In this document: piece after piece, positions 18,614 to 41,233 of the stretch
Layout of the letters: every line of letters begins with the position of its first letter
How positions within the stretch are numbered: the first letter of the stretch is position 1
Assembly (NCBI GenBank): GCA_029907715.1
Contig: JARYLI010000005.1
Coordinates: 1-64,000, forward strand
DNA from: Methanothrix sp.
GTDB taxonomy: Archaea; Halobacteriota; Methanosarcinia; Methanotrichales; Methanotrichaceae
Length of the DNA: 64,000 nt
Reading direction: 5' to 3'
Made by a program: the position numbers and the translations under genes
The notes under the pieces: model-generated
Seen by the model: only the letters and a program-made list of their open reading frames with translations
Told to the model about the DNA's origin: nothing
The model's database searches: none

Positions 18614-19552
18614 TCATCCAATGCTCAGAAGCGCCAGCAGGAATATGGCGCGCACCATGACGCTCAGGCCTGTGGATATCGTGACGATCGTGAGACCGAC
18701 TCGCGGGCCGAATATGGCGGTGTAGTTCGGCACCATGCTCTTCATGGCGAAGATCGGGAGCATGAACATGCTGCCCAGCATGAGCACGGTCGCTGCCTGG
18801 ACCTCAGTCAGGGAGCCGCTCTGGATCATCGGGCTGAGCAGGGATATCCCGATGAGCGGGCTCGCGACGTATGTTGTCAGGGGCACTATCGCCTCAGGGG
18901 AGATGCCGAAGGTCTGGGCGATCGGAAGCACGCTCAGTCTGTCGAAGAAGCCGTGATCGTTCAGGGAGAGCACCAGCAGCGTCATCGCCATGTATGTGAT
19001 GGATATCCTGGCGAATGGTTTCATCTGCGTGCGAAGTATCTTCATTGTGGCATCAAGCGGGTTTCTGTTTCTTCTGGGTGGCTGCCAGGTGATCTCCGCA
19101 CCATTCCTTTCTCTGAGCAGCAGCCTGCCGAGCACTATCACTATGAGGATCTTGACGATGGCCGTGGTTATGAACACGCCTGCGTAGAAGAGACCAACCA
19201 CCGGTCCAAGAAGTGGAACAATCACCGGTATCTGGTATGTGAGTATCTCCCTGATGTACACCGGTATGCTGTTCATCATGGCGCAGAGCACGGTCTCGCG
19301 GTCGTCGAGAGCGCCACGCATCTTGAACTCCGCGATCATCGAGTTAGCTGCGACCGCTGAGCCGAGGGAGACCAGGAATGAGGATGCAGATATCGATGGC
19401 AGGTTCGCCATGGAAACGAGTGGTCTTGAGAGGACTGAGAGGCGATCGAGAATGCCGAGCTCCATTAGCATGCCCGCTAGAAACAGTCCGAGGAATACTG
19501 TCAACAGCACGGGTATCGCGGTGTCCAGGGCTCTGAACAGCAGGTCGAGCAT
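18614..19552 (-). CDS. Nucleoside-recognition (SpmA/GATE-like) membrane protein
   Basis: A 312-residue polytopic membrane protein with 7-8 hydrophobic helices. The internal SLGSAVAANSMIAEF and SPLIGISLLSPM segments resemble the 'nucleoside recognition'/GATE domain proteins common in archaea. Function in this family is unclear. A TATA-like TTTAAAAG lies 10-18 bases upstream of the ATG. It is convergent with the CDF gene. Confidence 0.7.
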   Translation of the reverse strand: MLDLLFRALDTAIPVLLTVFLGLFLAGMLMELGILDRLSVLSRPLVSMANLPSISASSFLVSLGSAVAANSMIAEFKMRGALDDRETVLCAMMNSIPVYIREILTYQIPVIVPLLGPVVGLFYAGVFITTAIVKILIVIVLGRLLLRERNGAEITWQPPRRNRNPLDATMKILRTQMKPFARISITYMAMTLLVLSLNDHGFFDRLSVLPIAQTFGISPEAIVPLTTYVASPLIGISLLSPMIQSGSLTEVQAATVLMLGSMFMLPIFAMKSMVPNYTAIFGPRVGLTIVTISTGLSVMVRAIFLLALLSIG

Positions 19553-19639: not shown

Positions 19640-19795
19640 CGCTCTTATCTATCTTATAACCTGCCCGGAGAGGCATCAGCTCTGCTATGCGCTCGTTTCG
19701 ACTTGTCTTTGACTAGCGTCGAAGGCCTGTCGAGCGAATGAGTGCATTAAGCAGCATGCTTGCATGTCCTTCAAGCTGCTGAACACATAAGAGCG
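19640..19795 (+). mobile_element. Family-A MITE-like element, copy 2
   Basis: A 156-bp copy with ends CGCTCTTAT and ATAAGAGCG and an internal TTCGACTTGTCTTTGAC hairpin segment. Flanking 8-mers are TGCTCGTA (19632-19639) and CGCTCGTA (19796-19803), a 7/8 match to a target duplication. Confidence 0.85.
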
Positions 19796-19886
19796 CGCTC
19801 GTAATGTGAACCGTGAGATCGACTGCATTCAGCTCGTGGAACGCATCATGCCAGGGTGCCGGTTCCAGAATGGCTGCGGTGAATGG

Positions 19887-20004
19887 GAACATGCTCGATA
19901 TGTTGAGGTAAATCGACCTCTTGGTAGATTTCTGGACGAACGACTGTGCAAGGCGGCTTCATTTGAGCAGTACCTCAAGTACGCTCACGATATTGAGCAT
20001 GTTC
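19887..20004 (+). mobile_element. Family-B MITE-like element, intact copy
   Basis: A 118-bp element with perfect 10-bp terminal inverted repeats GAACATGCTC (19887-19896) and GAGCATGTTC (19995-20004); pairing extends further with one mismatch. It is flanked by a perfect 8-bp direct repeat GTGAATGG (19879-19886 and 20005-20012). It ends 77 bases upstream of the malic enzyme ATG. Confidence 0.85.
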
Positions 20005-20046
20005 GTGAATGGGACCACACGCCCCGAGATGGTCAAAATCAACAGC

Positions 20047-20056
20047 AATATTTATC
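20047..20056 (+). promoter_or_regulatory. TATA box of the malic enzyme gene
   Basis: AATATTTATC lies 25-34 bases before ATG 20081, giving a near-leaderless transcript. It is 43 bases downstream of the family-B element, so the upstream BRE/TATA region may be affected by that insertion. Confidence 0.5.
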
Positions 20057-20080
20057 TCAAATACATCCAGATACCCAGCG

Positions 20081-23626: not shown

Positions 23627-23640
23627 GAACATGCTCAATA
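23627..23640 (+). mobile_element. Solo end of family B
   Basis: A 14-base exact match to the family-B left end (GAACATGCTCAATA), with no matching right end. It lies about 30 bases upstream of the nfo start, in its leader. It is probably the remains of an excised or decayed element. Confidence 0.4.
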
Positions 23641-23776
23641 CTATGAGCGAGCAAGAGTCAATAATGGACTGCATCCCTAATAGTAAACAGGTATTTAAGC
23701 AACAGTATTTAAAGCAACCTCCGATTCGAACTGATCTGGTGGCCTGTAATCCAATGCTGAATGCAGTCTTTTCTTG

Positions 23777-23893
23777 GAACATGCTCAATATGTGAGGTAA
23801 ATTGCCCTCTTGGCGGATTTCTGGATAAACGACTACGTCCGATGATAGGGCCTTACTTGATAAGTAACTCAAGTACGCTCACGATATTGAGCA
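23777..23893 (+). mobile_element. Family-B MITE-like element, decayed copy
   Basis: About 117 bases matching the 19.9-kb copy along the whole length, including TGAGGTAAATNG, GATTTCTGGA and CTCAAGTACGCTCACGATATTGAGC. The left end GAACATGCTCAATAT is intact; the outer right end has diverged after GAGCA. No direct repeat is visible. Confidence 0.7.
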
Positions 23894-23903
23894 AATACAA
23901 CTC

Positions 23904-24027
23904 CGCTCTTATCCATATGATGACCTGCCCGAAGAGGCACCAGTCACGCTGTGCGCTCGTGGCGAGCGATTGAGTGCATTAAGAAACCGGCCTGCATATC
24001 CTTCAAGTTGCTGAATACATAAGAGCG
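23904..24027 (+). mobile_element. Family-A MITE-like element, copy 3, with perfect 8-bp duplication
   Basis: A 124-bp copy, ends CGCTCTTAT and ATAAGAGCG. The 8-bp sequence TACAACTC is directly repeated at 23896-23903 and 24028-24035. It inserted within a few bases of the decayed family-B right end. Confidence 0.9.
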
Positions 24028-24035
24028 TACAACTC

Positions 24036-26689: not shown

Positions 26690-26712
26690 TCCGCCTGAGG
26701 TGTAACCATCAA

Positions 26713-26881
26713 CGCTCTTATGCGTTCAGCAACTTGAAGGAGATGCAGGCCGGTTTCTTAATGCACTCATACCCTCGGAAACCCTTCGACTACGTCGAAT
26801 GGTTTCGACGCAGTCGAAGATAAGTCGAAACGAGCACATAGCATGACTTTTCTTCGGGCAAGTTATCAGATGGATGGAGCG
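26713..26881 (-). mobile_element. Family-A MITE-like element, copy 4, with perfect 8-bp duplication
   Basis: A 169-bp copy in the opposite orientation, the longest, carrying an enlarged internal hairpin built of TTCGACTACGTCGAA and TTCGACGCAGTCGAA. It is flanked by direct repeats ACCATCAA at 26705-26712 and 26882-26889. Confidence 0.9.
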
Positions 26882-28267: not shown

Positions 28268-28391
28268 CGCTCTTATCCATCTGATAACTTGCCCGAAGAG
28301 GCACCAGTCACGCTGTGCGCTCGTGGCGAGCGAATGAGTGCATTCAGCAACCGGCCTGCATGGCCTCCAAGTTGCTGAATACATAAGAGCG
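28268..28391 (+). mobile_element. Family-A MITE-like element, copy 5 (closest to consensus)
   Basis: A 124-bp copy with perfect inverted ends; the flanking AAA/TTT extends them to AAACGCTCTTAT/ATAAGAGCGTTT. It is almost identical to the 41.1-kb copy, indicating recent spread. No 8-bp duplication flanks it, so the copy may have recombined with another. Confidence 0.88.
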
Positions 28392-28535
28392 TTTGCAGAT
28401 ATCGACGACGCTACCAAAATAACCGGCAGCGCTGTGGAAGGCCGTATCACCACCGAGATCAAAAGCGTGTGGCCTTGTGAATTCTGCGATCTGCTATGCC
28501 ACTGAATGCCAAATCCTGAAATTGCATTCTGTGAA

Positions 28536-34623: not shown

Positions 34624-34731
34624 TAACCCCCATCAGGTGATCCGGCGGAAGCCTGCGATGGAAAAGAGACCCGGCGAAATGCTGCTCAACTCGGAATATC
34701 CGATATTTCTAGGGAGATCTGCCCATCGGTT

Positions 34732-36009
34732 TCAGAGAAGCTGGCTGAGGTGAGGGAGGGCATTGACATACCAGAAAAGCACCATGATCCCCACTGCCAT
34801 CATTGGAATGAAGACCTTCGCCATCTCCATTCCGAACTCCCTGCTGCCCATGATGAATGCGATTGATAGCTTTAGCGCAGTGTTCGTTATCGCTGCGAGC
34901 ATTATGGCGATGACCGCGGTCTCGCTGCTGATGCTCCCTGCTGCAAGCGTCGCCATTGCAAGAACAACAGCATCAACATCCGCCAGCCCGGAGATCACAC
35001 CCGCCGCGTAGCTTCCGGTCTCCCCCAGTGAGATGGATGCGAGCTTTGTGACAAAGAGTATGAAGGCGAAGAGCACGCCGAACTTCAGCGCGGGAATCAA
35101 TCTGAACGGATCCTTGTGCGCTACACGGCTCTCGATCGGTGCGGCATTCTTTCTGAGAACATACGCCAGAACCACGCCGACTACCGCCATTGCTGCGAGC
35201 TGGGCTGAGAGTGGCAGAAGCAGCTCCACGTTGACAAGCATAACTATCAGAAGTATTCGAGGGAACATCGTGCAGCTTGCCAGGGTTGTGGCGAAGACAG
35301 CAGATGCCAGCGACTGGCTTCTCGCCCTCACCTCTGATGCCATGCTCATCGTGACAGCGGTGCTGGAGACAATACCGCCAAGAATTCCTGTGAGCGTGAT
35401 CCCCCGATCATCTCCAAGCACTCTTATGAGAATGTAGCCCACATAGCTTATCAGGCTCACAAGAACGACCATCATCCATATCCTTCTCGGATTCAGAACC
35501 TCAAGGGGATCCAGCGCCCGGTCGGGCAGAAGGGGGAGTATCACAAGCGCCACAAGCCCCATCTTGAGCGTGTCGAGCAGCTCTGTATCGCTGATCGCCT
35601 CGACGTATCTGTGGACTGTCTTCCTGATGGCCAGAGTCCAAGTGACGAGAATCGAGAGGGCAACCGCCAGAAGCATGCTCTCCTCGAAGCAGCAGAGCGC
35701 TCCAAGGAGAAATGTGATCGCAGCAGCGACAGCGGATGTGAAATCGAGCCATCCAATGATCCTGGATGCTGTGGCATATCCTGTTCCCACAAGTATGAGA
35801 AAGCCGGCATATGCAACCACAATAAACAGATCACCGAAGATCTCCGAGAGGCTGGCCGCAAGAGCGCCCAGAAGCGCTATGAGCACGAACGTGCGGAGGC
35901 CGGCCACGCCCCTGGTTTTGTCCTCTACGATTCTTTTCTGGCGCTCGACTCCTATCAGCGCTCCGATGATCATGGCCATTACGAAGGGATAGAGGTCTGC
36001 GAACTCCAT
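34732..36009 (-). CDS. MgtC/DUF4010 family membrane protein
   Basis: A 425-residue protein starting at ATG 36009 (MEFADLYPF); upstream in-frame codons do not look coding. The N-terminal MgtC-like part has GALIGVERQ and TRGVAGLRTFVLIALLGAL. The C-terminal DUF4010 part has repeated Gly/Ala-rich helices, including AGVISGLADVDAV and ISSETAVIAIMLAAI. About 12 transmembrane helices. The family is linked to metal or pH homeostasis but the function is unknown. Confidence 0.85.
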   Translation of the reverse strand: MEFADLYPFVMAMIIGALIGVERQKRIVEDKTRGVAGLRTFVLIALLGALAASLSEIFGDLFIVVAYAGFLILVGTGYATASRIIGWLDFTSAVAAAITFLLGALCCFEESMLLAVALSILVTWTLAIRKTVHRYVEAISDTELLDTLKMGLVALVILPLLPDRALDPLEVLNPRRIWMMVVLVSLISYVGYILIRVLGDDRGITLTGILGGIVSSTAVTMSMASEVRARSQSLASAVFATTLASCTMFPRILLIVMLVNVELLLPLSAQLAAMAVVGVVLAYVLRKNAAPIESRVAHKDPFRLIPALKFGVLFAFILFVTKLASISLGETGSYAAGVISGLADVDAVVLAMATLAAGSISSETAVIAIMLAAITNTALKLSIAFIMGSREFGMEMAKVFIPMMAVGIMVLFWYVNALPHLSQLL

Positions 36010-40992: not shown

Positions 40993-41109
40993 GGACGTTC
41001 ATCACCTCATAACAACTTATTTATTCTTGATTGACGCTGAAAGTTTTGTATGAACATGAATCGTTCATGCCGGATGAGGAAGAGTGTTAGAACGTGCTCA
41101 GTTGAGAAA

Positions 41110-41233
41110 CGCTCTTACGTATTCAGCAACTTGGAGTGCATGCAGGCCGGTTGCTGAATGCACTCATTCGCTCGCCACGAGCGCACAGCGTGACTGGTGC
41201 CTCTTCGGGCAAGTTATCATATGGATATGAGCG
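41110..41233 (-). mobile_element. Family-A MITE-like element, copy 7
   Basis: A 124-bp copy in minus orientation, nearly identical to the 28.27-kb copy, with ends CGCTCTTAC and ATATGAGCG. No 8-bp duplication flanks it. It lies between the convergent methyltransferase and AhpD-like genes. Confidence 0.85.

What the first reader, a model, noticed from the sequence alone, without database searches (positions are those of the whole stretch)
19879..20012. Second short mobile family (B) with 10-bp TIRs and a perfect 8-bp duplication
A 118-bp element with TIRs GAACATGCTC/GAGCATGTTC flanked by GTGAATGG. A decayed copy lies at 23777-23893 and a 14-base solo end at 23627. The TIRs differ from family A but both make 8-bp duplications, hinting at related transposases.
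Basis: seen in the sequence. Interest (0 to 1): 0.65.

Follow-up and report, generated by a model that had tools for sequence, protein, structure and literature searches.

The report
Orphan archaeal MITE from IS66-type transposon
A 118-bp piece of DNA in a methane-producing archaeon is one of about 48 copies of a small non-autonomous jumping element whose ends match those of a divergent IS66-type transposon found in related archaea but not detected in this genome or genus; it is a new family of an ordinary kind of mobile element.

Summary
Window 19887-20004 is a 118-bp element with perfect ends (GAACATGCTC/GAGCATGTTC) and a perfect 8-bp duplication (GTGAATGG). A relative in the same genus has the empty site, with a single copy of the target. 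About 48 near-full-length copies lie in the genome; 27 have 7-8 of 8 matching flanking bases, against a flat 25% at shifted registers. The window copy is an atypical variant: the common form is about 119-124 bp and asymmetric (GAACATGCTCAATA...TATTGAGCAAATAC). It is a MITE.

The likely source was found. Same-family archaea carry complete ~1.53-1.6-kb insertion sequences with exactly these ends (GAACATGCTCAATA or GTATTTGCTCAATA), exact 8-bp duplications and one ~475-aa DDE transposase, a divergent member of the IS66 family's single-ORF ISBst12 group. The MITE's left end matches one such IS left end over 20/20 bases, and the window's 'solo end' (23627) matches that same IS's right end over 33/37. 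No such transposase was detected in the window's genome or five congeners, one of them closed. So this is an orphan or recently stranded MITE family: a new member of a known kind. The hint that family A uses a related transposase is not supported.

The parts
19887..20004 (+). MITE family B, variant copy (118 bp, perfect 10-bp ends, no transposase gene)
   Evidence: strongly hairpin-forming by palindromy (z -5.1)
19879..19886 (.). target-site duplication, left copy GTGAATGG
   Evidence: empty site in G005
20005..20012 (.). target-site duplication, right copy GTGAATGG
23777..23898 (+). MITE family B, common asymmetric form (GAACATGCTCAATA...GAGCAAATAC)
   Evidence: own duplication decayed (5 of 8)
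23627..23663 (+). solo relic: right end of an IS66-type IS (37 nt, 33/37 identical to the right end of the IS in G021)
23904..24027 (+). family-A MITE inserted across the right border of the B copy, with its own 8-bp duplication TACAACTC (23896-23903 / 24028-24035)
19640..19795 (+). family-A-related element upstream in the same intergenic region, duplication TGCTCGTA/CGCTCGTA; locus also empty in G005

Best explanation
The element is a MITE: a non-autonomous deletion derivative of a small archaeal insertion sequence of the IS66 family, single-ORF (ISBst12-like) group. The transposase of such an IS, acting in trans, recognises the terminal repeat (G-A--TGCTCAATA, present as GAACATGCTCAATA or GTATTTGCTCAATA), mobilises the ~120-bp piece and joins it to staggered cuts 8 bp apart, so that repair leaves an 8-bp duplication. 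Shown here: copies, ends, duplications, an empty site, and complete ISs with the same ends and duplication length in the same archaeal family. Inferred: trans-mobilisation by this transposase. Also shown: the source IS was not detected in the window's genome or its genus, so today's copies are probably stranded unless an IS re-enters. How the family formed (for example, by use of a cryptic internal end in a longer deletion derivative like the 164-bp element of G005) is inference.
For: Copies and duplications. Empty site. Complete ISs: L145 1397-2928 (1532 bp), ends GAACATGCTCAATATCGTG/GAATATGCTCAATATC, duplication GTCTTCTT, 471-aa ORF; L142 287-1814 (1528 bp), both ends GTATTTGCTCAATA, duplication GATAATTC, 478-aa ORF; L143 1105-2700, both ends GAACATGCTCAATAAA, duplication GAAACGAT. 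In G021, three pairs of IS-end contigs share identical 8-bp flanks (GAAACTCA, CAATTGCA, CTAAATGC), and the right-end contigs encode the transposase C-terminus. MITE left end = G021 IS left end 20/20; window solo end = G021 IS right end 33/37. G005 L042 2090-2253 is a 164-bp element joining both, duplication GACTGATG. Transposase: PF03050 77 bits, E 1.6e-21; NCBIfam IS66 E 6e-42 and 2e-43; D, D, E motifs align with other IS66 transposases. The TGCTCAATA-type end recurs on distant bacterial relatives.
Against: No such transposase is detected in the window's genome or its five sequenced congeners, so no helper-MITE pair co-resides. Between MITE and any one IS only the terminal 14-20 bases match; the interior is unrelated. 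The two ends of the common MITE match end types that were seen on different ISs.
Confidence: 0.85

Rival explanations
1. It is a MITE, but driven by another transposase (another 8-bp-duplicating family) of the genus; the end match to the IS66-type elements reflects convergence or a shared older ancestor.
For: No IS66-type gene found in the genus, yet at least one insertion is younger than the split from G005 and some copies are 99-100% identical.
Against: 20/20 identity to the G021 IS left end, 33/37 of the solo end to its right end, and both MITE end types occurring as IS ends with exact 8-bp duplications. No transposase was found between paired ends in the window's genome; the 1.3-kb candidate is an IS630-type element nested inside a copy.
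Confidence: 0.1
2. A palindromic repeat kept as a structured RNA or regulatory site, not a mobile element.
For: Strong hairpin (z -5.1); many copies; the window copy sits just upstream of the malic-enzyme promoter region.
Against: 8-bp duplications at one exact register, an empty orthologous site, nested insertions and no Rfam match. The hairpin follows from the inverted repeats alone.
Confidence: 0.03
3. Relics of whole IS66-type elements decayed in place rather than copies of a small mobile unit.
For: The solo end at 23627 and the 164-bp element in G005 look like IS remnants.
Against: Dozens of copies share the same ~120-bp interior (91% to consensus) and most have their own duplications: they moved as the short unit.
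Confidence: 0.02

Closest known systems
IS66 family, ISBst12 group (single-ORF; e.g. ISDge4 of Deinococcus geothermalis, PMC12898284)
   Same: The presumed source ISs: single DDE_Tnp_IS66 ORF (471-478 aa against 449), 8-bp duplication, imperfect ends of the same style (GTAACTGCTCAGCA in ISDge4; GTATTTGCTCAATA here).
   Different: Archaeal, divergent (NCBIfam IS66 scores 144-149, below its 180 cut-off); many ends start GAACATGCTC; the MITE itself has no gene.
Prokaryotic MITEs (e.g. MITECca01 from an IS982-family element, PMC9769881; review PMC10969869)
   Same: Short, multicopy, inverted ends, target duplication, presumed trans-mobilisation by an IS sharing only terminal bases.
   Different: No co-resident source IS detected; source is IS66-type, which the review does not mention (no 'IS66' in its text).
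Archaeal MITEs of Sulfolobus, Halobacterium, Haloquadratum (listed in PMC10969869)
   Same: Same kind of element in archaea.
   Different: Different hosts; their ends and source transposases were not compared here. This one is in the Methanothrix family.

Membership tests
MITE | short (<~300 bp) with terminal inverted repeats | tested here: met
   116-125 bp typical; ends GAACATGCTCAATA / GTATTTGCTCAATA
MITE | target-site duplication of fixed length | tested here: met
   8 bp; 27 of 50 rows with 7-8 matches, offset control flat
MITE | multicopy and mobile as a unit | tested here: met
   ~48 copies; empty site in G005
MITE | autonomous partner with the same ends | tested here: met
   complete ISs in same-family genomes; none detected in own genus
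MITE | mobilised in trans by that partner | not testable with these tools
   needs a transposition assay
IS66 family (for the presumed source IS) | DDE_Tnp_IS66 transposase | tested here: met
   PF03050 77 bits over a 23.1 cut-off; D, D, E motifs
IS66 family (for the presumed source IS) | NCBIfam curated IS66 cut-off (180 bits) | tested here: not met
   144 and 149 bits, E 6e-42 and 2e-43: a divergent branch
IS66 family (for the presumed source IS) | 8-bp duplication | tested here: met
ISBst12 group | single transposase ORF, no accessory tnpA/tnpB | tested here: met
   only one ORF of at least 150 aa within each 1.53-kb element
ISBst12 group | phylogenetic placement inside the group | not tested
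   no reference set of ISBst12 proteins at hand

The most novel reading that the evidence does not exclude
An IS66/ISBst12-derived MITE family that multiplied and changed sites within a genus of methanogens that has lost, or never kept, the driving transposase, so that movement depends on transient visits of the IS; with ends of two types (GAACATGCTC and GTATTTGCTC) combined in one element, pointing to an enzyme that tolerates mixed ends.
Probability: 0.4. Interest if true: 0.45.

Novelty: new member of a known kind. Interest (0 to 1): 0.33.

Why it matters
It assigns an unannotated repeat family of Methanothrix-type archaea to a likely source transposon in an IS family for which I found no MITE in the papers searched, and offers a clean case of a MITE apparently outliving its transposase: an empty site, an intermediate 164-bp form and related autonomous ISs one genus away. 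It also warns that intergenic repeats near promoters in these genomes (such as upstream of the malic-enzyme gene here) are insertions, not conserved regulatory elements.

Tried and rejected
IS630-type element between paired ends at G000:C7:65530-66833 (L057): it is nested inside a MITE copy, not its driver. Two inverted copies flanking 1.17 kb at G000:C3:94632-96031 (L059): no transposase recognised between them and independent flanks. Classical IS66 hits (PF03050) in same-family genomes: their loci lack these ends; the divergent branch found from the ORF next to the end has them. Structured RNA: no Rfam match. Viral contigs: no exact match of a 22-base end. Family-A transposase: none found; ends essentially absent from 15 other same-family genomes.

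Full report
OBSERVATION. The window holds GTGAATGG-[GAACATGCTC...GAGCATGTTC, 118 bp]-GTGAATGG at 19879-20012, in the intergenic region between a Gate-domain gene (18614-19552, minus) and a malic-enzyme gene (from ~20096, plus). A DNA search of the whole genome (2.0 Mb, 55 contigs) gives 53 matches. Pattern searches for the two end types give 60 and 74 hits, with none for the reversed control pattern. Collecting copies from fetched loci leaves ~48 near-full-length ones (50 rows, two of them wrong-strand duplicates), 91% identical to a 124-bp consensus on average; some pairs are 99-100% identical.

ENDS AND DUPLICATION. Most copies are asymmetric: GAACATGCTCAATACGTTGAGG... on the left and ...CACGATATTGAGCAAATAC on the right (that is, GTATTTGCTCAATATCGTG inward). 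The window's 19887 copy and L002 (97% identical) are a variant with the GAACATGCTC type at both ends. Comparing the 8 bases outside each end, summed over all rows, gives 63% identity at the exact register and 24-29% at shifts of -6 to +6. 27 of 50 rows match at 7 or 8 of 8 (chance 0.0004 each). Larger copies are explained by nested insertions: a family-A MITE (for example L065, L067, L062), a TA-type element (L060, L064), and an IS630-type IS in L057.

EMPTY SITE. The orthologous locus of G005 (same genus, 94% identical on the malic-enzyme side) reads ...GTCTACGGCGAATGGGAGCACGGGCCC..., with one GCGAATGG and no element. It also lacks the family-A-related element at 19640-19795. The window insertion is therefore younger than that split, or was lost precisely from G005, which is less likely.

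THE SOURCE. In same-family genomes G021 and G009, contigs break just after GAACATGCTCAATA followed by an ORF start. In G021, left-end and right-end contigs pair by identical 8-bp flanks three times (GAAACTCA, CAATTGCA, CTAAATGC), and the right-end contigs encode residues 435-471 of the transposase at 57% identity. Complete elements were then found: L145, L142 and L143, all with exact 8-bp duplications; L179 and L180 are the named records (Methanothrix sp. CSMAG_2495, JAUWQF010000022.1; uncultured Methanosarcinales, CAIQHB010000007.1). The single ORF of L145 and L142 matches DDE_Tnp_IS66 and NCBIfam IS66 below its strict cut-off, with D, D and E motifs aligned to other IS66 transposases. Distant relatives in cyanobacteria, Desulfobacterota and Omnitrophota (31-51% identity) carry ends of the same type, e.g. 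GTATCCGCTCAATAAG, GTAACTTCTCAATAAG, GTAATTGCTCAATAAC. A published ISBst12-group element, ISDge4, has GTAACTGCTCAGCA, one ORF and an 8-bp duplication, and was caught transposing (PMC12898284).

LINK BETWEEN MITE AND IS. The MITE consensus left end equals the G021 IS left end for 20 of 20 bases. The window's solo end at 23627 equals the G021 IS right end for 33 of 37; both beat 500 shuffles. G005 L042 2090-2253 is a 164-bp element that starts as the MITE and ends as that IS right end, between perfect GACTGATG duplications. This is the kind of intermediate expected of a deletion derivative. That the present MITE arose from such a form by using the internal GTATTTGC end is inference.

ABSENCE OF THE TRANSPOSASE. 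Neither PF03050 nor the transposase itself finds anything in the six genus-g1 genomes, one of them closed. In the window's genome no contig ends inside such an end, as a collapsed IS would leave, among the places listed. So the helper is absent or transient. Since mobilisation was not assayed, trans-mobilisation remains inferred.

FAMILY A. Its ends (CGCTCTTATCCATCTGATAACTTG / CGCTCTTATGTATTCAGCAACTTG) number 275 hits in this genome and 89 in G002, but only single two-mismatch hits in two of the other 15 same-family genomes. A copy of A is inserted across the right border of the B copy at 23777, with duplication TACAACTC. Kinship of the A and B transposases is not shown.

VERDICT. A real, well-delimited MITE family with a likely identified source IS type: a new member of a known kind, of modest specialist interest.

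Noticed in passing
G000:C15:33477-33690 and 34704-35102 (L034): Family-B copies expanded into head-to-tail arrays with a 92-bp unit that keeps one end and loses ~27 bases of the other; two arrays ~1 kb apart.
   Followed up: partly
window 28268-28394, 23904-24027, 41107-41233, 26711-26870 and ~275 ends genome-wide: Family A (CGCTCTTAT... ends, 8-bp duplications) is far more abundant than family B; source transposase unknown, ends essentially confined to the genus.
   Followed up: partly
L060, L064: A third small element (TATAGTATTCCGCATAAGTTGC...GGACTATA), inserted at TA inside B copies: probably an IS630/Tc1-type MITE.
   Followed up: no
L057 610-1727: IS630-type element with its transposase split into two ORFs (HTH and DDE_3), nested in a B copy.
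   Followed up: partly
L145 1209-2928: One IS66-type element inserted into another with a perfect GTCTTCTT duplication.
   Followed up: partly
window 19887-20060: The insertion lies ~40 bp upstream of an A/T-rich promoter-like stretch (ATATTTATCTCAAAT) conserved before the malic-enzyme gene in all five congeners; it could alter upstream regulation.
   Followed up: no
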